From Atherinomorus stipes (taxonomy: Eukaryota > Chordata > Actinopteri > Atheriniformes > Atherinidae), in contig JALJCO010012611.1 of the NCBI GenBank assembly GCA_023101725.1, positions 186,001-250,000 on the forward strand: a stretch of DNA of 64,000 nt, in the 5' to 3' direction. Below the pieces are notes generated by a model. The model had not been told where the DNA came from. It was given only the letters and a program-made list of their open reading frames with translations, and ran no database searches. This document shows positions 14,233 to 60,508 of the stretch, in pieces. How positions within the stretch are numbered: position 1 is the stretch's first letter; the number at the start of each line of letters is the position of its first letter. A program made the translations under genes and the position numbers.

Positions 14233-14772
14233 CCAAATCAATTTCGTCGCTCTGATTCCTACGGCAAGCCGCCATGGTTGTTGTTGTCTGAAATAACTGA
14301 CTGACTACACTGCTGTCGCCTGTGCTTCTACATCACATCCGGCCAAAACGCCGCCCATCCTTCAAAAGTCCCACCCGCGATTAGTGATTGGCTCCTATTA
14401 TTCTCTAACCAGACGAAATCACCTATAACTGTCGCCTTACTCAGATGGAGTGCGTGAGGAAAGGGAACGCCCCCGCGTGTACTTGTTGAACGCACCCAGA
14501 TGATGTAAATCAGGTTAGTAGCGACCTGCGTGCACGGGGGTAAACATGGATGCTGTTAGCATGTCTATCAAAGTCAAAATATCATCTGACCTTGTTCCTT
14601 CCATTGTGTCCATTCAATCTTACCGTATCCTGTCTCACTTCACGTCTGTCTCACTTCTGTAACGTCAAAGTCAGATGAAATGCAACATGACATTCAGACT
14701 TCGACACAGCTCGGATATGATTTTGATTTAAGACCACATATGAAAAAAGAAATGGATTTGCGCCGTTCAGAC

Positions 14773-15037
14773 TAGGGCTAAAAGATATATCGTTATCGTA
14801 ACCAGATCGAGATATGGACATTCAAGATATTAATATCGCAAAAGCAACTATATAAAACATATAGATTTCCCCTGCGCTTGTCCTGCATCTAAAGCTCTGG
14901 AAGTCACAAACAAAACTGCACTTTCCACCAAAGTACTTGGTTTTCAACAAACCCGCAGTCATATTGTATCGTATCGATATTGAGATGTCTGGCATGAATA
15001 TCGAGATATGAAATTTTGTCCATATCGTTCAGCCCTA
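14773..15037. mobile_element. 265-bp hAT MITE (reference copy of the hyper-converted element at 45937)
   Basis: GTTCAGAC is duplicated at 14765-14772 and 15038-15045. The ends are TAGGGCTAAAAGATATATCG on the left and CATATCGTTCAGCCCTA on the right, inverted repeats with some mismatches. AT-rich interior with many ATATCG steps. It is nested in the 13736-15112 element. Its reverse complement aligns without a gap to 45937-46201. Confidence 0.95.
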
Positions 15038-15499
15038 GTTCAGACTGTCAGTAATAATCTGAAATGAGTTGCATGTGAGCAAAAGCTGAGAACTGAGCTG
15101 CAGTGTGAACGTGGTCTGGCCCTCATCTCATCAGGTGATGAAGGCAGAGATCAGAGAGGTCCTGCAGGACAAACAAGGGTGAAACAAGGTTAATAAGTCT
15201 TCATCTTTATTTCACGTCACTCATGGCATGTGCTATAGACTTCCCCACATTCACAACCGAATCGCTCTGCAGTTGTACAGCCTTGTTTCTGTGTGTTTGT
15301 GTGTGAGTGACATGTTTCAGTATGTCAGGTGTATATGAGAGAGTGGGAGCTGTAAACAGATGGAGCTAAAATTGACATTTAGCTGGTTAATTCTGACAGG
15401 ACCGGGCTCGGGCTGGAGTAAGGCCTGATGGACCGCTGCCAAGCGGCCCTGAGGTTTTCTTGAGCCTTTTTTCACATCTGGGATGTCCTGGTAGCCAGT

Positions 15500-16474: not shown

Positions 16475-17059
16475 TAAACTGGAAAAAGGGTCAGGGTTTA
16501 GGTCTTGCTGTCCTGGATTCAGTCCGTGACTTCAGTCCCAGTTGTTCTCGTAGGTTGAGCACTCACCAGGAAGGACAAAGAATAATTATGTAACTTTTTG
16601 TCTGCACTTTGGTTTAGATACTGATGAGTGAGCCACTGTGGTCCATCTGCCTTGGGGCACGTCTCATGGTTTCCTCAAATGAACGAGACTTGAATGACCT
16701 GGATTCTTGCAGCAGGTCAGACAACTCTGCGTGGTCTCGTGGTTGTTTTCTGAAATGTTATGAGCACGAAACCGTCGTCATCAGATGAAAAGAGACAGCA
16801 AAACTCCAGTCCAGCTGGTGGTGTCACCACCCCTTTTTCCTCCGCTCCCTCCCGCCCCCTTGCGTCAAGCATTCCAACCTTGGCAATCGCGCAGACGGCC
16901 TCTTCCAACCGTTCCGTTCTAACGAGTGTTCTGGACTTTTGGCACAGTCACATGGTGAAAAAAATGAAGATCTAATCCCATATCTGGACGTGAGGATGTT
17001 TTAATCGTCACAAAAGTAACCATGTGACCCTACCTTTAGAGAAAATTGGGTGGTTCAAC
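16475..17059. other. No recognised feature
   Basis: Possible leftover 3' sequence of the preceding LINE, otherwise nothing identifiable. Confidence 0.35.
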
Positions 17060-20000
17060 TAGGTCTATATCAGAAACTTTAATCCCAGTCAGCAGTACAA
17101 CCTTTAATCTCAGTCAGCATCAGAACCTTTAATCCCAGGAAGCAGTGGAACCTTTAATCCCAGGAAGCAGTGGAACCTTTAATCCAAGTCAACATCAGAA
17201 GCTGTCATCCCAGTCAGCATCCAGAATCTTTAATCCCAGTCAACATCAGAACCTTTAATCCCAGTCACCATCAGAACCTTTAATCCCACTTGGTATCAGA
17301 ACCTTTCATCCCAGTCAGCATCAGAACCTTTAATCCCAGTCAGCAGTGGAACCTTTAATCCCAGTAAGCATCAGAACCTTTAAATCAAGTCAACATCAGA
17401 AGCTGTCATCCCAGTCAGCATCCAGAATCTTTAATCCCAGTCAACATCAGAACCTTTAATCCCAGGAAGCAGTGGAACCTTTAATCCCAGTCAGCAGTGG
17501 AACCTTTAATCCCAGTAAGCATCAGAACCTTTAATCCAAGTCAACATCAGAAGCTGTCATCCCAGTCAGCATCCAGAATCTTTAATCCCAGTCAACATCA
17601 GAACCTTTAATCCCAGGAAGCAGTGGAACCTTTAATCCCAGTCAGCATCACAACCTTTAATCCCAGTCAGCAGTGGAACCTTTAATCCCAGTCAGCATCA
17701 CAACCTTTAATCCCAGTCAGCAGTGGAACCTTTAATCCCAGTAAGCATCAGAACCTTTAATCCAAGTCAACATCAGAAGCTGTCATCCCAGTCAGCATCC
17801 AGAATCTTTAATCCCAGTCTACATCAGAACCTTTAATCCCAGTCAGCATCCAGAGCCTTTAATCCCAGTCAACATCAGAAACTTTAATCCCAGTCAGCAT
17901 CAGAACCTTTATTCCCTCTCAGTATCAGAACCTTTAATCCCAGTCAGCATTACAACCTTTATTCCCTCTCAGTATCAGAACCTTTAATCCCAGACAAAAT
18001 CAGAACCTTTAATCTCAGTCAGCATCAGAACCTTCAATCCCAGTCAACATCAGAACCTTCAATCCCAGTCAACATCAGAACCTTTAATCCAAGTCAACAT
18101 CAGAACCTTTAATCCCAGTAAGTATCCAGAACCTTTAATCCCAGTCAACTTTAGAACCTTTAATCCCAGTCAACTTTAGAACCTTTAATCCCAGTCAGCA
18201 TCAGAAATTTTAATCCAAGTCAGCATCAGATCCTTTAATCCCAGACAAAATCAGAACCTTTAATCTCAGTCAGCATCAGAACCTTCAATCCCAGTCAACA
18301 TCAGAACCTTCAATCCCAGTCAACATCAGAACCTTTAATCCAAGTCAACATCAGAACCTTTAATCCCAGTCAGTATCAGAAATTTTAACCCAAGTCAGCA
18401 TCAGATCCTTTAATCCAAGTCAGCATCAGAACGATTAATCCCAGCCAGCATCAGAACCTTACTCACGGTCAGTATCAGAACCTTCAATCCCAGTGAGTAT
18501 CAAAACCTTTAATCCGAGTCAATTTTCAAAACCTTTTAATCCAGTCAAGATCAGAACCTTTAATCCCAGTCAGTATCCTGAATTTTAAATCCAGTCAGAT
18601 CTGAACATTTGAACCTTTAATCCCAGTCAGCATCCAGAAACTTCAATTTCAGTTAGCATCTAGAACCTTTAATCCCAGTCAGCATCAGAACCTTTAATCC
18701 CAGTCAGCATCAGAACCTTTAAACCCAGTCAGCACCCAGAACCTTTCATCACAGTCAGCATCAGAACCTTTAATCCCAGTCAGCATCAGGACCTTTAATC
18801 CCAGTCAGCATCCAGAAACTTCAATCTCAGTCAGCATCTAGAACCTTTAATCCAAGTCAGCATCAGAACCTTTCATCCCAGTCAGCATCAGAACCTTTCA
18901 TCCCAGTCAGCATCAGAACCTTTAATCCCAGTCAGCATCAGGACCTCAGAACCTTTAATCCCAATCAACATCAGAACCTTTAATCCCAGTCAGCATCAGA
19001 GCCTTTCATCCCAGTCAGCAGTGGAACATTTAATCCCAGTCAGCATCAGAACTTTTAGTCTCAGTCAGCGTCAGAACTTTGAAACTCAGCATCTAAAACC
19101 TTTCATCCCAATCAACATCCAGACCCCCCCAGTCAGCATCCCAAATCTTTAATTCCAGTCAACATAAGAACCTTTAATCCAAGTTAGCATCAGAAACTCA
19201 TAACCTTTAATCCCAATTTACATCAGAACCTCAGAACTTGTAATGCCTGTCAACATCAGAACCTTTATTCCCAGTCAACATCAGAACTTTTAATCCCAGT
19301 CAGCATCATAACCTTTAATCCCGGTTAGCGTCCAGAATCTTTAATCCCAGTCAGCATCAGAACCTTTAATCCCACTTAGTATCAGAACCTTTCATCCCAG
19401 TCAGCAGTGGAACCTTTAATCCCAGTAAACATCAGAACCTTTAATCCCAGTCAGCATCATAACCTTTAATCCCGGTTAGCGTCCAGAATCTTTAATCCCA
19501 GTCAGTCTCAGAACCTTTAATCCCTGTCAGCATCAGAACCTTTTATCACATACAAAATCAGAACCTTTAATCCCAGTGAGCAGTGGAACTTTTAATCCCA
19601 GTCAGCATCCAGAACCTTTAATCCCAGTCAACATCAGAATGTTTAATCCCAGTCAGCATCAGAACCTTTAATCCCAGACAACATTGGAACCTTTAATCCC
19701 AGTCAGCCTCAGAACCTTTTATCTAAGTGAGCATCAGAACTTTTAATCTCAGTCAGCATCAGAACCTTTAATCCCAGTCAGCATTAGAACTGTTAATCAC
19801 ATTTAGCACCAGAACCTTTAATCCCAGTCAGCATCAGAACCTTTAATCCCAGTCAGCATCAGAACTGTTAATCCCAGTCAGCATCAGAACCTTTAATCCC
19901 AGTCAGCTTCCAGAACCTTTAATCTCAGTCAGCATCAGAACCTTTAATCCCAGTCAGCATCAGAACCTTTTTTTTTTTTTTTAAAGGATTTTTTGGGCAC

Positions 20001-38306: not shown

Positions 38307-38846
38307 GGTCTAGGAGGACTACTTTTTAATAAATGGCTGGTCATAACAGGGGGAAACACTCTGATGGACGCAGCGGAATGGGAGTGGACACGTGTCCAAA
38401 CGGGCCCAGTCATTGACCCTCCCCCGCCAGCTGACTACTGTCAGTTGCAAGTGGAGGGGGCCATTGGTGGAGCCAGAAATTTCACTGGGGTGGCCAGGGA
38501 GAATAAGAAGGGAAAATGGTTTTGAAGCAGCTTGGGGTCTCTGTAACTGCTTGAGTGCCGGCCGGTTAAAACATTAGGGTGGATCACCTTTCACCTGTAA
38601 GCCTACCCATAGTCACAGAGGGCATCGCCACAGGGACCCCCCAGATCAGGGCAGGCCAAGGTCGACAGCACAGCTGTAGGGCTGCAGTGCAGGACCCCAG
38701 CCACCAGGACAAGGGCAGCCACCACCTGTCTCCAGACCACGTTGGCAAAGCCCCCACAGTGGACGTTCCCCAAATAACCCAAAGCTTCATTTGTCCTGGT
38801 ACAATGAAATTGGTTGTCAAATGATGGAGCCCTGCCATGTTTCACC
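38307..38846. other. No recognised feature
   Basis: GC-rich and open in several frames on both strands, without a recognisable domain. Confidence 0.4.
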
Positions 38847-39086
38847 CCTGGCCCAGTTTACCTCCAAGCCCAGATTAACCCCTGGCCCAGTTTAACTCCA
38901 AGCCCAGTTTAACCCCTGGCCCAGTTTAACTCCAAGCCCAGATTAACCCCTGGCCCAGTTTAACTCCAAGCCCAGTTTAACCCCTGGCCCAGTTTAACTC
39001 CAAGCCTAGTTTAACCCCTAGCCCAGTTTAACCTCTGGCCCAGTTGAACTCCAAGCCCAGTTTAACCCCTGGCCCAGTTTAACTCC
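38847..39086. repeat. 33-bp minisatellite
   Basis: Two related halves, CCTGGCCCAGTTTAA and CTCCAAGCCCAGTTTAA, alternate about seven times, with GATTAA and CCTAG variants. Confidence 0.97.
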
Positions 39087-40110
39087 TCAGTTTGTGCAAA
39101 CATCAGTGTGTATGGACACCATTCTTAGCCCTGAATCGAAACGTGGGTGACTGTGCAGGATGAAAGGTCCGTGTTGTGGACAGCCCACCTCAACAAGCAT
39201 CAAGTCCAGTCTCGCATTACTTCAGCCAGCTTAACATATCTTGAGACACCAAATTGCACTGCAGCCACACGGTGATCTGCGGTTATTTGTCTTTGGTTCC
39301 TTTAACTTAGTTCACAGTAAGTGCAGGGTGAGCGAGTCAGGAAATCGCAGGGGTATTTAACAAAGCTTGTGTAATTGATTGTGGCAGATCCTGCCAGCAA
39401 ACAGCAGGTCCACAGCCCCTTTCACTGCACCCAGCAGAGGGTCCGCATTGATGTGGATAAGGGAATTATCTCTACTCTGGTGACTCGGACCGGAGGACAC
39501 TGGAAATTCAATTAAACCAATCTATGTTCTTAATGTCCTACGTTCTGACCATAAATCTAAATTTTGATTTTCAGAGGTAGGAGAGAGTGGATGTTTTGAA
39601 GAGGAAAAGCTGCTGGTTTGTTGAGAGATGTGCTATTCTGACTCAGATGTAAAGCTGCACTTCATTAGAACATACATTTTATCATCTTGTTCAGCACTTC
39701 AAATAGTAGTGACCTAAGGGCCAGAGCTGTGACTCACTGTGGGGGTGGAGAGTGTGGTTAGCTGATGTATGTTTAACACCGTTAAGCCATTTATTCTATC
39801 ATGTGGGAGATTTTTAGAAAAAAGAAAAGTTGGATGCAGAGCTGAGGCTGTTAACCACAAGACAATCAGGTGGAGCGGCTGCTTTGTGCAGTGATGGAGA
39901 ACAAGGCAGATGGTTTCACTTTGAGAGGCTAATCAGAGGGGTAAAGGAGCTGTGAGGGAGGACAGCGGCACAGATTACACCCTCATCACTAATAACTCGT
40001 ACATTTATTGCAATATTGTAATAAAGCATCAAATATAATAAGAATTATTTGCATTGTCATATTTGCATCAAACTTAAACTATTGAAAATGTCAGTAATTC
40101 CTCCAAACCT
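39087..40110. other. No recognised feature
   Basis: Unique-looking, no open frame of interest. Confidence 0.4.
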
Positions 40111-40881: not shown

Positions 40882-41872
40882 TATGGACTTAGGTGGAATG
40901 AGACTGTCTGAACAGGAAGGTTCTGAGTCTGGATTTGAAAAGAGGGAAGGAGTCCAGGGTACGGAGATCAGGAGGGAGGGAGTTCCAAAGATGGGGAGCA
41001 GAGCGACTAAATGCCCGGCTCCCCATTGAGACCAGATGGGCCTGGGGAACGGAGCTGGAAGGTGTGGGAGGATGGTGGGGAGCGGGTAGGGCTGTTAACG
41101 TGAAGGAGATCAGGGATGTAAGATGGAGCCATGTTATGGAGGGCCTTGAAAGTAGTGAGGAGGAGTTTGAAGATGATTCTTTGTTTGATGTGGAGTCAGT
41201 GGAGATGTTGCAGGATGGGAGTGATATGATGAGAAATGGGGGTCCGAGTAATCAGGCGTGCTGCAGAGTTTTGAAGGAGCTGCAGTTTCTGGAGGGACGT
41301 ATTTGGGAGGCCGAAAAAAAGTGAATTACAGTAGTCAATGAGAGAGGTGATGAGACTGTGAACAAGGATGGCGGTAGTTTGGGGAGTGAGAGAGGGACGA
41401 GATGAGAGATGTTACGCAGGTGGAAGTAGGCGGACCGGATGATGTTGTTAATGTGAGACTGGAAGGGGAGTGTGCTGTCGAGGACGACACCCAGACTCTT
41501 AACCTGAGGGGAGGGGGAGGACAGTTGAGTCATTGAGGGTAATGAAGAAGTTACTGGCTTTGGAAAGAGTGTGAGGTGCCGACTAGGAAGACTTTGGTTC
41601 AAGAGCTGTTCAGTTTGAGGAAGTTGGGTGAAAACCAAGAATGGATTTCTTGGAGACAGAGGGTGAGGGGGGCTGGTGGGAGTGAGGCAGATGGGTGAGT
41701 AGAGAGGTAGAGCTGTGTGTCGTCCACGTAGCAGTGGAATTTGATGTGATGCTTACGGAGGATAAAGCCAAGAGGAGGATGTAGATAATAAACAGGAGGG
41801 GCCCCAGGACAGAACCTTGGGGCACACCGGCAGAAACGGGGAAGGAGATGGATTTATGAGATTTGAGTTGTA

Positions 41873-45399: not shown

Positions 45400-45459
45400 A
45401 AAGAGTGCCAGGCGAGCATATGCCCAAAAAAACCGCCCTCAGACCCCAGAGAAGAAGAT
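45400..45459 (+). pseudogene. Tc1-like transposase segment left of the L1 insertion
   Basis: The sequence agagaagaagat at 45448-45459 and the bases before it continue, in register, with aaagctgatagaacggccca at 48342. Together they resemble the 'KKKIK-V-x-W-P-S-Q-S-P-D' approach of Tc1 transposases. The L1 insertion at 45460-48329 separates them. Confidence 0.6.
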
Positions 45460-45475
45460 TTTTTTTTTTTTTTTT

Positions 45476-46660
45476 CAGCACAATCCCCCAACCCCGCCAG
45501 AGCCACCACCCACCCACCCACACAGCCGCCCCGCATCCGATCCCCCCACAGATCCACCCCCCGCTCCCCACCCAAACCCCCCCAACCGACACACACAAAC
45601 CCCACCAATGCACCACCACCCCCACACCCAAACACCCATCCCCCATGTACCCCCACCCACCCACCCATCTCCACACACCCCCACAGGCAACCACACACAC
45701 ACAACCGCATTCACGCCCCCCCTCCAGTCACACACCCACCCACACACACCAAGGACGGGGACCACGGGGCCACCAGCCCCCCCCAACGCCACAAGTCCAC
45801 CGCCCCCAGCCCCCGCGAGACCAACCCGCACGAGACCACCCGCGCAGGCCAGCCCCAACCGACACAGCGGCCGGGCGGGACAGGCACCCGGCGTGGAAAA
45901 GACCCGGCCACCCCGCAACCCCCCACCTCCACACACTAGAGCTGAACGATATGGACAAAACCCCACACCCCGACAGCCACGCCAGACACCCCAACACGGA
46001 CACGACACGACACGACTACGGGTCCGCCGAAAACCAAGCACCCCGGCGGAAAGCGCAGCTCCGTCCGCGACCCCCAGAGCCCCACACGCAGGACAAGCAC
46101 AGGGGAAATCCACATCCCCTACATAGCCGCCCCCGCGACACCAACATCCCGAATGCCCACATCCCGACACAGACACGACAACGATACACCCCCCAGCCCC
46201 ACCACACACACACACCCCCACCAGCACACACACCCGCACGCACACAGCAGAGGCGCCCCGGCCCCCGGCGCAGTGACTAGACGTCACCAGGTCGTGAGGA
46301 CCGGCCAAAACCAGAGGAGGCACGTCCCGCCGGCCCGCCCCCCCCCAGCGCCAAGCCGGGCCCCCCGGCCCCGGAGGCAGGGGCCACCCCCGAGCACCGG
46401 GGCCCAGGACCCCCCGCGCCCCCCCCGCCCCGGGACGGCCCCTGGCCACCAGGCGCCGGCCGACAGCCACCGGCCAGGGCCCCACCAGCGACCCGCCCAC
46501 CGCCGCAGAGCAGCCCCAACCGCTGACCCCCATGCCCCCCATCGGGCTGGATACAGCCCCGCCCCAGCGGCGAGGCAGCCCAGACCCCCCCCCCCAAGTC
46601 AACCACCAGGGATCCATAGCCATCAAGCACTCGCCAGCACCCAACCCCCACATCGCCGAG
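45476..46660. other. T-depleted (A-to-G converted on the L1 sense strand) block
   Basis: About 1.2 kb in which T is nearly absent on the + strand: two T in 45481-45540, none in 46201-46260 and none in 46381-46440. Normal T content resumes abruptly beyond about 46660 (the L1 reading frame) and at the A tail. It is C-rich rather than simply GC-rich and is not a tandem repeat. A 265-bp hAT MITE at 45937-46201 shows that the composition arose by T-to-C change in place. Stop codons all contain T and A, so both strands are open for long stretches (for example 392 codons on minus). Confidence 0.9.
45937..46201 (-). mobile_element. 265-bp hAT MITE with wholesale T-to-C conversion
   Basis: Aligned base by base to the reverse complement of 14773-15037, the two are the same length with no gap. 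The first 24 bases (tagagctgaacgatatgg and on) differ at one position and keep all four T. In the next 241, I count 85 T positions in the reference: 71 are C here, 12 remain T, 2 are other bases. Only about 8 of the roughly 156 remaining positions differ. CCACACAC at 45929-45936 and 46202-46209 is an 8-bp duplication, as expected for hAT. Confidence 0.95.
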
Positions 46661-46680
46661 GCGGCTCTCCTACACCAACG

Positions 46681-47860
46681 TTAAGTGATGGAGCTAATCA
46701 CAGGGGACCAGAGGGAGTGGAATTCATCTAACTGGTTCTTAGAGGAGGCAGACATCGTCTCAATACTGATATGGTCTACTAAGAAATTCCTAAACTGGCT
46801 AATGCTCAGATTATTTTTGGATTTCCAGTTTACCAAGATAGTTTTCTTTGCAATACATAATACAGTAAGTATCATATGTGCATAGTTGGTTACCGTGTTG
46901 ATCTCATCCAAGTCCCCCAGTAAACACAGTGTGGGGCTTGCAGGGAAGTTACACCTGAGCCACGTTGACAGGTCATCACATACCTGAAGCCAAAACCTCT
47001 GGACAGGTGGACAAGACCACAAGGCGTGAAGATAATTGTCTGTTGTATTCTCATTGCAGTGCAAACAAATATTTGAAGGTGACAGACCCATCTTGAACAT
47101 CCTCTGTCCTGTGTAATGTACTCTGTGTAAAACCTTGAATTGTATCAACTGTATATTTGAGTTTTTAGTCATTAGGAACGTGTTTAAACATATCTGTGTC
47201 CATGTGTTTTGGTTAAGGGTTCTGGACAAGTCAGCCTCCCACTTCGAAGTTGGAAGGGAAATTGAATCATTCAGTTTTAATAATAATCTATATATTTTCG
47301 ACAGTAGTTTGGGGATAGAGAGATTCAGGAATTCTGCTACCCTGACCGGAGTCTGCAGGATCAGTTGGTTAGAGGTATATTTTTTGCTTAATATAGATTT
47401 AAGTTGATGGTATTCTAAGAATTTAGTACTACTGATCCCGTTTTGTAAGGTAAGTGTATTAAATGACAGGAATTTTCCATTTTCAATGATATGTTGTAAT
47501 TGTTTTACTCCTTTATCCTTCCAATGCACAAAATTAATCATTTTCTTGTTTTGTAAAATATCCAGATTATTCCAGATGGGTGTGAGTTTACATGGAATAA
47601 TAGAAGACTCGGTTAACTTCAGGAATTCCCACCATGCTTTCAGAGTAGAGCAGATGTTGATACTTTTAAAGCATTTATGAGATCTGACTGCTGAACTGAT
47701 GAACGGCAAATCAGAGACATCCAGATCCTCACATAATGCTTGTTCTGTGTCTAGCCACGGTTCATCTAGATGGGTAGGTTTCAGCCATTTGGAAATAAAT
47801 TGTAGCTTATTTGCTAGAAAATAATAATTGAAATTGGGTGAGTCTAACCCTCCCCGGTCT
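46681..47860 (-). pseudogene. L1-clade ORF2 C-terminal region
   Basis: A frame of 342 codons (47709-46681), open upstream to about 47860, codes for RGGLDSPNFNYYFLANKLQF, later FKVLHRVHYTGQRMFKMGLS and NICLHCNENTTDNYLHALWS. The C-x2-C-x7-H-x4-C-like cluster is the Cys-rich domain that ends L1-type ORF2 proteins. The domain lies after the RT and is thought to aid RNA binding. Here it is intact but not attached to a reverse transcriptase, so the copy cannot mobilise itself. The A content of this part is normal, unlike the adjoining 3' block. Confidence 0.92.
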
Positions 47861-47884
47861 TTTACCTGTTGTAAGGTGTTCCTC

Positions 47885-48329
47885 CGGGGAGACCTGGTAG
47901 GCGTCTTCTAGTGATTTAATTCTAACTTCTAATTCTGAGATTCTTGCAGCTTCCTTTTTTTTATGGGAAGAGAAGGAAATTATTTTTCCTCGCATTACTG
48001 CTTTACCTGCTTCCCAAAGGACACATGCTGGAGTTTCTGGTACATCGTTGTTCTCTAGATAAATGGACCATTCTCTTTTAAAATAGCTGATAAACTCAGG
48101 ATCTTTCAGTAATGATGTATTAAATCTCCAACTCCTAGTTGCTGGTTAAATAGTTTTATTTCTCAGAGTTAATGATACTGGTGCGTGATCACTGATGGTT
48201 ATTGGGTGGATTTCTAATTCTGAGATTTCACCCATCAGTGAGCTGCTGGTTAAGAAGTGATCTAATCTAGAGTAGGAATGGTGAACTGAGGAGAAGAAGG
48301 TATATTGTCTTGTGGTGGGGTGAGAAGAT
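47885..48329 (-). pseudogene. L1 ORF2 endonuclease end and linker
   Basis: The minus strand reads HPTTRQYTFFSSVHHSYSRL, DHFLTSSSLM, ISDHAPVSLTLRNKTI, a stop, then (in a shifted frame) FKREWSIYLENNDVPETP and CVLWEAGKAVMRGKIISFSS and ARISELEVRIKSLEDAYQVS. S-D-H-x-P is the conserved end of the AP-type endonuclease. The segment is cut at its 5' end exactly at the target duplication. At 47885 it joins the C-terminal region directly, with the RT core deleted. Confidence 0.88.
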
Positions 48330-48341
48330 AGAGAAGAAGAT

Positions 48342-48660
48342 AAAGCTGATAGAACGGCCCAGTCAGTCACCCCACTAGAATCCAGTCGAAAATCTTTGGA
48401 AAGAACTGCAGATCCGAGTTGACAGAAGAGACCTTGAAGATCTGAAAGCAGTTTGTGTGGAAGAATGAACCAAAATCACACCTGAGCAACGTATTCCACT
48501 GGTGTCTCCATACAGGAGGCGTCTGGTGGCTGGAATCACCAATAAAGGTTTTTGTACGAAGTATCAAATTTCAGTAAACGTTGTCAATACATATTCCCCA
48601 TGTCATTTTACTTTATTACAACTTCATATATGGAGATAAATGTTAGGATTTCTTTGTATG
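48342..48660 (+). pseudogene. Tc1-like transposon, 3' part
   Basis: The plus strand reads PSQSPH, a stop, NPVENLWKELQIRVDRRDLE, DLKAVCVEE, a stop, TKITPEQRIPLVSPYRRRLV and AGITNKGFCTKYQISVN. The first block contains the third catalytic position of the DDE/D triad (N-P-x-E-N), followed by the canonical C-terminus. Two in-frame stops make it inactive. The 3' TIR region follows to about 48640. Confidence 0.9.
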
Positions 48661-51874: not shown

Positions 51875-52215
51875 TTAATTGTTAAATCAATTCTAAAATC
51901 ATGAAAAAAACAGAAAAAAAGAAACCTCAAAAAAGATCCGGGGCTTTTGAAGAATCATTTCAGGCTTAAGCCCCCTAACCCCCGCTCCGCCGATGCCTCA
52001 GACTTCACACACGCTCGCTCGCTCACACACCAACGGGAGCTAGGCTGGACCTTTGCGCGTTTGTGGTGCGTTCAAGTGCTGGTAGAAAGCTGGGTCATTT
52101 GGATTTTCGTGGGATTATTTTCAGAAAAAGGTAGTTAAACAGTAAATTCATACCCGGGGCTAAACTGAAAACATCTGGGGCTGAAGCCCAGGGAAAAACG
52201 GCTGGCGACACCACT

Positions 52216-53371
52216 GTCAGTCCATCCACCTAAAAACCACCAACCAGGCCAGAAATCTGGGTGTACTGATGGACTCAGACCTAAAAACCACCAACCAGGC
52301 CAGAAATCTGGGGGTAGTGATGGACTCAGACCTAAAAACCACCAACCAGGCCAGAAATCTGGGGGTAGTGATGGACTCAGACCTAAAAACCACCAACCAG
52401 GCCAGAAATCTGGGGGTAGTGATGGACTCAGACCTAAAAACCACCAACCAGACCAGAAATCTGGGTGTAGTGATGGACTCAGACCTAAAAACCACCAACC
52501 AGGCCAGAAATCTGGGTGTAGTGATGGACTCAGACCTAAAAACCACCAATCAGGCCAGAAATCTGGGTGTAGTGATGGACTCAGACCTAAACTTTGAAAA
52601 ACACATCAAAGCGATCACTAAATCAGCCTACTATCACCTGAAGAACATCTCAAGGATAAAAGATCTGATGTCTCAGGAAAATCTGGAAAAACTAGTCCAT
52701 CATTCATCTTCAGTCGGCTTGACTACTGTAACAGCGTCTTTACTGGTCTACCTAAAAAATCAGTTAAACAGCTGCAGCTCATTCAGAACTCTGCTGCCCG
52801 AGTTCTCACTAAGACCAGAATAGTGGACCACATCAGTCCAGTTCTCAGGTCTTTACACTGGCTGCCGGTCCATCAGAGAATAGACTTTAAAGTTCTGCTG
52901 CTGGTCTATAAAGCTCTGAATGGTTTAGGCCCAAAATACATCAGTGACCTCTGACCCAGTATGAACCTACTAGACCCCTCAGGTCATCTGGATCGGGCCT
53001 TTTATCAGTTCCCAGAGTCAGAACCAGACATGGAGAAGCTGCGTTCAGCTTCTATGCTCCACATGTCTGGAACAAACTTCCAGAAAGTCTCAGATCAGCT
53101 GAAACACTTAGTTTATTTAAATCCAGGCTGAAGACCCACCTGTTCTCAGCTGCATTTACGTAGATTTTATTCAAAAGTTAAAATCCGCACGTCTCTGTAT
53201 TCTCTCTTTTTAGTCTTAAATGGTTTGAATTTTAGATCATGCTTCTACTTTTTTGTTCTTAATTTTTTTCTTTCCCTTTTGCATCCCGCTGTAATGCTAA
53301 TAATGTTTTATGTAAAGCATTTTGAATTGTCCTGTACATTAAATGTGCTGTACAAATAAACTTGCCTTGGC
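52216..53371 (+). mobile_element. L2-like LINE 3' part with in-frame tandem expansion
   Basis: After the 51-bp array the plus strand reads [20 protein letters not shown] and [20 protein letters not shown], a frameshift, then (shifted) [40 protein letters not shown] and [39 protein letters not shown]. This is the C-terminal end of an L2-group RT. The 3' tail contains TAAATGTGCTGTACAAATAA and ends CTTGCCTTGGC at about 53371. A minus-strand fragment of the same family is at 60507-60812. Confidence 0.93.
52229..52583 (+). repeat. 51-bp tandem repeat inside the LINE coding region
   Basis: Seven units, each 17 codons, DSDLKTTNQARNLGVVM with one Thr variant (NQTRNL). The motif R-N-L-G-V-x-x-D-S-D-L is the conserved thumb segment just after the RT catalytic core in L2-like LINEs, so the expansion duplicates genuine protein sequence. 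The units are nearly identical and the frame stays open through them. Confidence 0.97.
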
Positions 53372-58619: not shown

Positions 58620-60508
58620 AGCTTAGTCAGGCTGATACACCAACAGAGAACCTGGTCACCGGCTTGTTAACACAAAGATCTACCCAGCCAATCACACGGC
58701 AGTATCTAGTCATGCAGACGTGGTGAAGACGACTTGTTGAAGTTCAAACTGAGCATCAGAATGAGGAATGAAGGGGATTTCATGGTTGTTGGTTTGAGTA
58801 TTTACTGGGATTTCCACCACAAGCATCTCCAGTGAGCAGCAGTTGCCTGGACCAGCATCCAGCAGAAGACCAGACCGGGTGCCGTTTCTGTCAGCTGACA
58901 GATCTGGGGACTGTGGAGAACATTTGAGTACAATGAACTCATCATGTTCAAGAAATCAGTCTGAGATGATTCCCGCTTTATTACATGGTGCGTTCTCCTG
59001 CTGGATGATGTCATCTTTATGACATGGCGCGTTCTCCTGCTGGATGATGTCATCTTTATGACATGGCGCGTTCTCCTGCTGGATGATGTCATCTTTACGA
59101 CATGGCGCGTTCTCCTGCTGGATGATGTCATCTTTATGACATGGCGCGTTCTCCTGCTGGATGATGTCAACTTTATGACATGGCGCGTTCTCCTGCTGGA
59201 TGATGTCATCTTTATGACATGGCGCGTTCTCCTGCTGGATGATGTCATCTTTACGACATGGTGCGTTCTCCTGCTGGATGATGTCATCTTTATGACATGG
59301 CGCGTTCTCCTGCTGGATGATGTCATCTTTATGACATGGCGCGTTCTCCTGCTGGATGATGTCATCTTTACGACATGGCGCGTTCTCCTGCTGGATGATG
59401 TCATCTTTATGACATAGCGCATTATCCTGCTGGATGATGTCATCTTTATGACATGGTGTTTTTTCCTGCTGAAAAATTTTTTTTTTTAAAATGGGGCGTT
59501 TTTTTGTGGGATAATTTTTTTTTTTTAAAATGGGTTGTTTTCTTGGTGGATGATTTTTTATTTATGAGAGGGTAATATCCTTGTGGGGGATGTTATTTTT
59601 ATAATATAGTGTATTATCCTGCTGGGGGAATATCTTTTTAGAAGGGCGGTTCTCGGAAATGTCATTTTTAGAAGGGCGATTATCCTGGGGAATGTCATTT
59701 TTAGAAGCGAATATCAGGTCTCAACATCTTCGCCCCGCCCGCTGGATGATGTCATCTTTATGACATGGCACGTTCTCCTGCTGGATGATGTCATCTTTAT
59801 GACATGGCTCGTTCTCCTGCTGGAAGCAGCATCAGAGGATGCTCCACTGTGGTCATAAAGGGATGGACATGGTCAGCAACAATTCTCAGGTAGGCTGTGG
59901 TGGTTAAACCGCCACGTTGGTACTAAGGGGCCCAAAGTGGGCCAAGAAAATCTGTCCCACACCATCACACCACCACCACCAAGCTGAACCGTTGATACAA
60001 GGCAGGATGGATCCATGCTTTCATGTTGCTGACACCAAATTCTGAGCCTACATCTGAATTTGGTAGCAGAAATGGAGACTCATCAGACAAGGCAACATTT
60101 CTCCATCTTCTATTGTCCAATGTTGGTGAGTCTGTGTGAATTGTAGCCTCAGTTTCCTGTTCTTAGCTGAGAGGAGCGGCACCCGGTGTGGTCTTCTGCT
60201 GCTGTAGCCCATCTGCTTCCAGGTTGGATGTGTTGTTCATTCAGAGATGCTCTTCTGCAGACTTCAGTTGGAACAAGTGCTTATTTGAGTTCCTGTTGCC
60301 TTTCTATCAGCTGGAACCAGTCTGGCCATTCTCCTCTGACCTCTGGCAACAACAAGGCATTTGTGCCCACAGAACTGCTGCTCACTGGATATTTTCTCTT
60401 TTTGGGACCATTCTCTGTAAACCCTAGAGATGGTTGGGCAGGAAAATCCCAGTAGATCAGCAGTTTCTGAAATACTCAGACCAACGACCATGCCACGTTC
60501 AAAGTCAG
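58620..60508 (-). pseudogene. Tc1-like transposase relic with an expanded catalytic segment
   Basis: The minus strand encodes GMVVGLSISETADLLGFSCP, TISRVYREWSQKEKISSEQQ, RGQRRMARLVPADRKATGTQ (the helix-turn-helix DNA-binding half). Then come shifted segments equivalent to W-S-D-E-S (cttgtctgatgagtctcc, with the first catalytic Asp) and H-P-F-M-T-T-V-E (catccctttatgaccaca). The Q-Q-D-N-A-P-C-H block follows, here repeated many times as QQENAPCHKDDII. Downstream FLEHDEF and SPQSPDL survive. A tail with tgattggctggg and ttgtgttaacaagccggtg ends near 58640. Stops and frameshifts are many. The catalytic Asp of Q-Q-D-N is Glu in the repeats. Confidence 0.9.
58983..59830 (-). repeat. 39-bp tandem array inside the Tc1-like transposase
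   Basis: About 12 near-identical units lie in 58983-59460, each encoding 13 codons (KDDIIQQENAPCH) on the minus strand. About seven strongly degenerate units full of homopolymer T follow at 59461-59740. Two clean units follow at 59745-59830, directly abutting the rest of the transposase. Both strands stay open through the clean part. Confidence 0.95.

What the first reader, a model, noticed from the sequence alone, without database searches (positions are those of the whole stretch)
45937..46201. A hAT MITE in which T has been converted to C almost throughout, on one strand only
The reverse complement of the MITE at 14773-15037 aligns over all 265 bases, with no gap, to 45937-46201. Outside the first 24 bases I count 71 T-to-C changes among 85 T positions, against about 8 differences in about 156 other positions. 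Ordinary decay would spread changes over all bases and include the reverse change. The two copies otherwise look about 95% identical, and each has an 8-bp duplication. Established knowledge: ADAR enzymes turn A into inosine, read as G, in double-stranded RNA. On the minus (L1 sense) strand the change is exactly A to G. Inference: the L1 transcript was hyper-edited, then reverse-transcribed into the genome.
Basis: partly seen in the sequence, partly recalled or inferred. Interest (0 to 1): 0.95.

Follow-up and report, generated by a model that had tools for sequence, protein, structure and literature searches.

The report
LINE tail rewritten, adenine to guanine
In what is likely a fish genome, a small DNA stowaway inside the untranslated tail of a jumping gene has had four in five of its adenines turned into guanine on one strand, a change likely made by RNA editing before the element copied itself back into DNA, and the rewritten jumping gene now sits at dozens of places.

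Summary
The MITE at 45937-46201 is converted T-to-C on the plus strand (A-to-G on the L1 sense strand), and the 1.2-kb tract around it, this copy's L1 3'UTR, is equally A-poor: from the ORF2 stop (46681) to the poly(A) tail (45475), sense A is 55 of 1205. ORF2, tail and flanks are normal. Against a consensus of 16 ordinary MITE copies, 69 of 86 A became G; 4 of 265 sites changed otherwise. The conversion is not private to this copy: 64 other copies examined, the best matches in the genome, carry it, so it was made in an ancestor that then multiplied. Some MITE sites are A in part of the copies and G in the rest, which points to more than one step. An apparently different LINE holds the same MITE family inverted, again converted on that LINE's own sense strand (23 of 36 A to G, 0 of 20 G to A; one locus). 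Best reading: ADAR-type deamination of LINE RNA, fixed by retrotransposition. But two ADAR hallmarks fail: conversion exceeds the 40-50% reported for dsRNA, and A after G is not clearly spared. No unconverted L1 ancestor was found.

The parts
45448..45459 (.). Target-site duplication AGAGAAGAAGAT, copy at the 3' side of the L1 insertion
   Evidence: exact 12-bp match to 48330-48341, abutting the poly(T)
45459..45475 (-). Poly(A) tail of the L1 (17 T on the plus strand; the first may belong to the duplication), not converted
   Evidence: sequence; boundary
45476..46680 (-). L1 3'UTR of this copy, A-poor on the sense strand (G 612, T 299, C 239, A 55 of 1205)
   Evidence: maximum-likelihood T-poor segment 45476-46665, 2-unit support 45475-45491 and 46660-46680
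45937..46201 (-). hAT-type MITE inside the 3'UTR, converted A to G on the L1 sense strand at 69 of 86 consensus A; 8-bp duplication CCACACAC at 45929-45936 and 46202-46209
45937..45960 (-). 24-base end of that MITE whose A stayed unconverted in the copies examined
46681..46683 (-). ORF2 stop codon TAA; border between normal and A-poor sequence lies here or within about 20 bases
   Evidence: (homologues end at the same place)
46684..47907 (-). ORF2 C-terminal part, open for 408 codons, not converted (third positions A 115, G 91)
47908..48329 (-). End of the ORF2 endonuclease region and linker; most of the reverse transcriptase is missing in this copy; 5' truncation point at 48329
   Evidence: human L1 endonuclease match begins at plus position 48328
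48330..48341 (.). Target-site duplication AGAGAAGAAGAT, copy at the 5' side of the L1 insertion
14773..15037 (+). Ordinary (unconverted) copy of the same MITE family; duplication GTTCAGAC at 14765-14772 and 15038-15045

Best explanation
The 3' untranslated region of a young L1 family, with a hAT MITE lodged in it, is depleted of adenine on the L1 sense strand, and in the MITE 69 of 86 adenines are now guanine; this most likely arose by ADAR-type deamination of adenosine to inosine in L1 RNA that was paired with an antisense strand, in more than one round, before reverse transcription fixed it in DNA. Shown: strand, substitution type, limits of the tract in this copy, canonical target-primed insertion, sharing by many copies, and sites still A in some copies and G in others. 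Inferred: the enzyme, the double-stranded state, the order of the rounds, and that the rest of the 3'UTR was converted like the MITE. The edited ancestor stayed mobile and became the source of the present family. A likely reason why the tract stops near the stop codon is that ribosomes strip paired RNA from the reading frame but not from the 3'UTR.
For: Against a consensus of 16 ordinary MITE copies, window copy B has A>G 69 of 86 and only 4 other changes (A>C 1, C>T 2, G>C 1); ordinary copies show A>G at 0.29% per site. The opposite strand serves as control: A>G there is 0-3 of 53-79 in the L1-borne copies. Tract limits fall at the poly(A) junction and within about 20 bases of the stop codon, while ORF2 third positions are untouched. 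TPRT anatomy: 12-bp duplication, 17-A tail, 5' truncation at the endonuclease. The 40 scored matches to the converted MITE (of 1064 candidates) and 30 of 30 ORF2-selected loci (40 scored of 881) carry it; these are 65 distinct places, the window copy included. Stepwise: at 70 converted MITE sites T remains in 57 of 2730 cells, with 8 sites shared by two or more copies, against 2 of 1716 cells and 0 of 44 sites where the MITE already had C (39 copies; Fisher on sites P=0.022); in the larger set 5 A cells and 1 shared site at 47 always-G sites. CpG: tract CG 92, TG 12, near the 98.8 and 14.2 expected from converting ORF2 at 85.3% (but see against). Second case: in L064 the MITE lies inverted upstream of another ORF and is converted 23 of 36 A>G, 0 of 20 G>A on that element's sense strand. 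Precedent: ADAR-hyperedited retroviruses (PMC8586724, passages).
Against: ADAR avoids A after G; here GA is converted at 12 of 15 or 13 of 17 against 59 of 68 or 55 of 64 for the rest; a five-fold avoidance gives P=0.0003, a two-fold one P=0.15 and is not excluded. Bass 2024 (PMC11019741, passages) gives 40-50% conversion for long dsRNA; here about 80-85%. Residual A are enriched before T (13 of 20 against 21 of 62, P=0.019), which I cannot explain. Copy-private A>G changes are few: 0, 2 and 1 in the three UTR regions of the first set, 3, 3 and none listed in the second; per A the second set's 4.7 and 5.8 per 1000 are the highest rates of their regions but rest on 3 changes each, so editing of present-day transcripts is neither shown nor excluded, and it is far below hyper-editing. 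Outside the MITE, shared A/G differences (10 sites) do not exceed shared C/T ones (19 sites), so the stepwise signal rests on the MITE. Five other window stretches converted in silico gave CG 108-118, more than the tract's 92, so some CpG decay is possible. Runs of A inside the UTR are not converted in 13 of 20 printed copies. The first 82 bases after the stop hold 9 A, between the two states. No antisense transcript, no unconverted L1 relative and no intermediate was found, but only best-scoring copies could be searched.
Confidence: 0.55

Rival explanations
1. A DNA polymerase that prefers G opposite template T (polymerase iota, or another polymerase under nucleotide imbalance) copied the plus strand over this tract when an ancestral L1 was made, and the result was inherited.
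For: Only template T is affected, without clear 5'-neighbour preference. Human polymerase iota was measured at finc 5.3 for dGTP over dATP opposite T with Mn2+ (PMC3031609, passages), which would give 84% G; the MITE shows about 80-85%. In an ancestor the tail limit needs no explanation, because the tail is renewed.
Against: The enzyme is poorly processive and tends to halt after template T (same paper), and the tract is about 1.2 kb. Its activity could not be detected in loach extracts (PMC5831811, passages). The limit near the stop codon would be chance. Mixed sites and a second element need repeated events.
Confidence: 0.12
2. Slow compositional evolution or selection for an A-poor, G-rich 3'UTR (for example G-quadruplexes that help retrotransposition), without any editing.
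For: The tract holds 5 G-quadruplex motifs on the sense strand. Mammalian L1 3'UTRs are also G-rich (recalled). The rest of the UTR has no unconverted relative to compare with.
Against: The MITE shows 69 A>G with only 4 other changes, and the 15 ordinary MITE copies fetched are 98.5-99.6% like their consensus, so there was little time. C and T sites were hardly touched.
Confidence: 0.1
3. A one-time hyper-editing in the founder, with the mixed sites due to later back mutation or exchange between copies.
For: 48 of 86 consensus A have no A left in any of 68 rows, so one founder carried most of the changes. Copy-private A>G changes are few, and shared A/G differences outside the MITE are not in excess.
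Against: A at converted sites is far commoner than A at sites that were always G (57 of 2730 cells against 2 of 1716). One round would have to exceed the 40-50% reported for ADAR.
Confidence: 0.18
4. Assembly or base-calling artefact.
For: None beyond the oddity.
Against: Found on many contigs, next to normal ORF2 sequence.
Confidence: 0.01

Closest known systems
ADAR hyper-editing of retroviral RNA, reverse transcribed (RAV-1, avian leukosis virus, HTLV-2, STLV-3; PMC8586724, passages)
   Same: One-strand A-to-G clusters in reverse-transcribed retroelement sequence
   Different: Here it is a LINE family in the germline, in this copy limited to the 3'UTR, inherited and multiplied; conversion is high and strong 5'-G avoidance is not seen
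Promiscuous ADAR editing of long dsRNA (Bass 2024, PMC11019741, passages)
   Same: Dense A-to-I in one RNA; internal loops reduce editing
   Different: Reported end point 40-50% and A after G disfavoured; here about 80-85% and nearly flat
APOBEC DNA editing of retrotransposons (PMC2873906, passages)
   Same: Strand-specific clustered transitions in genomic retroelements
   Different: G-to-A there; A-to-G here, with no G-to-A in the MITE consensus comparison
Diversity-generating retroelements (recalled)
   Same: Adenine-specific change during a retro-copy
   Different: They change A to any base in a short target; here A becomes G almost only
DNA polymerase iota (PMC3031609, passages)
   Same: G opposite template T at about the observed fraction
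   Different: Distributive enzyme; kilobase tracts by it are not known to me (recalled)

Membership tests
ADAR hyper-editing footprint | A-to-G on one strand, other changes rare | tested here: met
   69 of 86 A>G, 4 others
ADAR hyper-editing footprint | A after G is disfavoured | tested here: not met
   13 of 17 GA converted against 55 of 64; five-fold avoidance P=0.0003, two-fold P=0.15, so weak avoidance remains possible
ADAR hyper-editing footprint | Conversion not above 40-50% in one round | tested here: not met
   about 80-85% in the MITE; limit; several rounds could exceed it
ADAR hyper-editing footprint | Double-stranded RNA substrate | not testable with these tools
L1 LINE insertion by TPRT | Target duplication, poly(A) tail, 5' truncation | tested here: met
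   12-bp duplication, 17 A, truncation at 48329
L1 LINE insertion by TPRT | L1-type endonuclease and ORF2 C-terminus | tested here: met
   human L1 endonuclease E=1.4e-9; 44 homologues of the C-terminus, those named come from teleosts
hAT MITE | 8-bp duplications and terminal inverted repeats | tested here: met
   duplications; copy A ends match at 14 of the first 19
APOBEC DNA editing | C-to-T or G-to-A clusters | tested here: not met
   G>A 0 of 47 and C>T 2 of 52 on the sense strand of the MITE
DGR-like adenine mutagenesis | A changed to any base | tested here: not met
   69 A>G, 1 A>C, 0 A>T
Polymerase iota tract | G opposite template T at about 84%, other templates nearly error-free | tested here: inconclusive
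   fraction fits; processivity and source untestable here

The most novel reading that the evidence does not exclude
In this genome a recurrent process rewrites untranslated parts of LINE RNAs from A to G and stops at the reading frame; whatever inserts there, in either orientation, is rewritten on the LINE's sense strand, and the rewritten LINEs go on to multiply, so RNA editing becomes heritable and shapes whole retrotransposon families. The enzyme would either be an ADAR without the usual 5'-G avoidance or something not yet described.
Probability: 0.35. Interest if true: 0.93.

Novelty: new variant of a known kind. Interest (0 to 1): 0.86.

Why it matters
ADAR editing is seen as a transient mark on RNA. 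Here an A-to-G change on the RNA strand has become germline DNA, was tolerated at about 80% in a 3'UTR, and the element spread afterwards. The MITE gives a rare internal standard: its ordinary relatives are young and abundant, so the change can be counted site by site. It makes testable whether LINE RNA is double-stranded in the germline, whether ribosomes protect reading frames from editing, and whether editing can create new LINE families. The change also leaves a G-rich tract with many CpGs.

Tried and rejected
Rejected: C-rich MITE family (consensus of 16 copies is T-rich; B's own right end lost inverted-repeat matches, 9 against 14 of the first 19). Rejected: a single edited transcript behind this insertion. 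Rejected: MITE hairpin as the editing substrate, since the whole 3'UTR is A-poor. Rejected: a second unconverted UTR relative at 41447-41712; its collapsed score of 98.7 exceeds the best of 20 block shuffles (74.3), but its C positions match in only 7 of 21. Rejected: an effect on codons; ORF2 third positions are normal. An early impression from dinucleotides that ADAR context was present failed the count. Not used: folds of the two MITE copies as RNA (z -3.4 and -3.3); clustering of unconverted sites in the MITE was not significant (longest run P=0.059, runs P=0.16).

Led nowhere: scans of viral and prokaryote contigs for the L1 or MITE; protein search with a frame of the 3'UTR; Pfam and PDB searches with the 31-residue start of the second LINE. 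The collapsed-alphabet search with loose scoring gave little but noise apart from the MITE. Whether other LINE families have A-poor UTRs could not be asked: the genome search with P0011 was busy, and with the L064 stretch.

Rows to know: the 68 rows hold four copies twice (L027/L042, L034/L051, L035/L052, L037/L053); L004 was left out because its mapping failed; one search used 22 of 28 copies (ungapped). In one search, 'no A' and 'no G' sites may hold other letters or gaps. Copies were chosen by the search as most like the query, so conversion levels are biased upward in the first set and ORF2 identity in the second. In one search I printed 20 copies, chosen by eye.

Full report
WHAT IS THERE. 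The plus strand is T-poor over a much longer stretch, about 45476 to 46680, and no other part of the window falls below the threshold used, 20 T or 20 A in 200 bases. On the sense strand of the surrounding L1 this stretch has G 612, T 299, C 239, A 55.

ANATOMY. The stretch is the 3'UTR of an L1 copy on the minus strand. ORF2 is open for 408 codons up to the stop at 46681-46683, and homologues end at the same residues (four shown); those with a name are from teleosts. The 3'UTR of this copy ends in 17 A (45459-45475, plus-strand T). The insertion is flanked by a 12-bp duplication, 45448-45459 and 48330-48341, and the match to the human L1 endonuclease begins at plus position 48328, so the element is a 5'-truncated TPRT insertion. 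Most of the reverse transcriptase is missing in this copy. The maximum-likelihood limits of the tract are 45476 and 46665, with two-unit support 45475-45491 and 46660-46680. The first 82 bases after the stop hold 9 A, more than the rest of the tract (P=0.011) and far fewer than ORF2 (P=4e-6). ORF2 third positions are A 115, G 91: the reading frame was not converted, not even at synonymous sites.

DIRECTION. A search with the unconverted copy gave 40 scored matches of 1014 candidates, 94-96% apart from itself; 15 were fetched. Their consensus with copy A is T-rich, and the 15 are 98.5-99.6% like it. From this consensus to window copy B, on the L1 sense strand: A>G 69 of 86, A>C 1, C>T 2 of 52, G>C 1 of 47, T unchanged 80 of 80. 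The 16 ordinary copies show A>G at 0.29% per site, G>A 1.7%, C>T 1.4%.

NOT PRIVATE TO THIS COPY. A search of the 1.18-Gb assembly with the converted MITE gave 40 scored matches of 1064 candidates, 97-100% identical over 263-265 bases. The 28 profiled first are T-poor at the MITE, and in those that reach ORF2 the low-T stretch ends there; a good part of them are cut short on one side or the other. A search with the last 600 bases of ORF2 gave 40 scored of 881 candidates, 99.7-100% identical; 30 were fetched, and 30 of 30 carry the MITE in an A-poor 3'UTR. Together these are 65 distinct places, this one included. A protein search with a homologue (P0001) gave 95 scored of 4573 candidates, 11 of them with an open frame of 1247 residues. 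So the conversion was inherited by an L1 family whose best-scoring copies are young. In 13 of 20 printed copies the UTR continues past a run of A into further shared sequence with 4-17 A per 100 in the copies counted, so the window copy has a shorter 3'UTR than most of these.

MORE THAN ONE STEP. Of 86 consensus A, 48 have no A in any row, 12 have no G, 26 are mixed (68 rows, four copies twice). At 70 converted sites T remains in 57 of 2730 cells and 8 sites are shared by two or more copies; at 44 sites that already had C there are 2 of 1716 cells and no shared site (39 copies). In the 68 rows, 47 always-G sites hold 5 A cells and one shared site. Back mutation therefore does not explain most mixed sites. 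Against this: outside the MITE, shared A/G differences (10) do not exceed C/T ones (19). A>G changes private to one copy are few: 0, 2 and 1 in the three UTR regions of the first set; 3, 3 and none listed in the second, where 4.7 and 5.8 per 1000 A are the highest rates of their regions but on 3 changes each. Present-day transcripts are certainly not being hyper-edited at anything like the past level.

AGE. Converting ORF2 in silico at 85.3% gives CG 98.8 (sd 3.5) and TG 14.2; the tract has CG 92 and TG 12. ORF2 itself is CpG-poor (ratio 0.33). By this yardstick CpGs made by the change have hardly decayed. Five other window stretches treated alike gave CG 108-118 and ratios 0.84-1.00 against 0.76 in the tract, so some decay, or a different starting sequence, is possible. 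A CpG-rich tract may also escape methylation. This is only suggestive of youth.

CONTEXT. Conversion by 5' neighbour, last 24 bases left out, with copy A as reference: T 20 of 23, A 24 of 27, C 15 of 18, G 12 of 15; with the family consensus T 22 of 25, A 21 of 25, C 12 of 14, G 13 of 17. The rate ratio GA to the rest is 0.80 (0.36-1.55); a ratio of 0.2 has P=0.0003, a ratio of 0.5 P=0.15. The residual A of the whole tract fit a flat or mildly biased model better than the strong one. The literature read says that ADARs take anything but G on the 5' side and that long dsRNA ends at 40-50% (PMC11019741, passages). So two hallmarks fail, at least for one round. Residual A tend to lie before T (P=0.019), unexplained.

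A SECOND CASE. In L064 the L1 3'UTR match ends at base 824 after ORF2 and is followed by another A-poor stretch that ends where an ORF begins (A per 50 bases 0-7, then 15 and 24). That stretch holds bases 149-265 of the same MITE family in the opposite orientation, and on the strand of that ORF A>G is 23 of 36, G>A 0 of 20; a strict alignment of 105 bases gives 20 of 31 with 5 other changes at 74 sites. Tolerating A>G raises the alignment score from 85 to 171, tolerating another transition to 85-93. In our L1 the same MITE strand shows 0-3 A>G of 53-79. So the change follows the strand of the host element, not of the MITE. Limits: it is one locus; the ORF start is 31 residues, without a Pfam or PDB match, and resembles a LINE endonuclease start only weakly. 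Its wider family could not be searched.

MECHANISM. Strand, single substitution type, RNA-like limits and a retro-copied element point to the RNA before reverse transcription. ADAR is the known animal activity of that kind, and hyper-edited retroviruses are the precedent (PMC8586724, passages). To reach 80% and a flat context I assume several rounds with copying in between; this is inferred. Translation keeping ORF2 single-stranded would explain the border; also inferred. The main rival is a polymerase that puts G opposite T; polymerase iota has the right ratio (finc 5.3, PMC3031609, passages) but is poorly processive, and its activity was not detected in loach (PMC5831811, passages). The 5'UTR of two copies with a long ORF2 is not A-poor (about 29% A) but T-poor, owing at least in part to a 36-bp tandem array, so the process did not act on every untranslated part of this L1.

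VERDICT.

Noticed in passing
L086:2031-2560 and L087:2129-2640: Two copies with a long ORF2 have a 5'UTR of about 510 bases with a T-poor 36-bp tandem array right before the ORF2 start; no ORF1 is seen between the start of their shared sequence and ORF2.
   Followed up: partly
3'UTR of copies such as L043, L045, L049, L051, L065, about 1100-1150 bases after the stop: A run of A, preceded by mixed A and G, lies unconverted inside the A-poor 3'UTR, and shared sequence continues beyond it; seen in 13 of 20 printed copies.
   Followed up: partly
L064:90-684 (minus strand; MITE piece 568-684): Second A-poor stretch with the same MITE inverted and converted on the other element's sense strand.
   Followed up: partly
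45937-45960: The A of the 24 bases at one MITE end stayed unconverted in the copies examined while the other end was converted; a test for clustering within the window copy gave P=0.059.
   Followed up: partly
47810-48329: This L1 copy lacks most of its reverse transcriptase between the endonuclease and the C-terminal part.
   Followed up: no
17021-18377 and beyond, 38800-39139, 52177-52642, 58887-59863: Tandem arrays with periods of about 25, 17, 51 and 39 bases.
   Followed up: no
48390-48620: Sequence beside the L1 looks like the end of a Tc1-type element (recalled resemblance, not tested).
   Followed up: no
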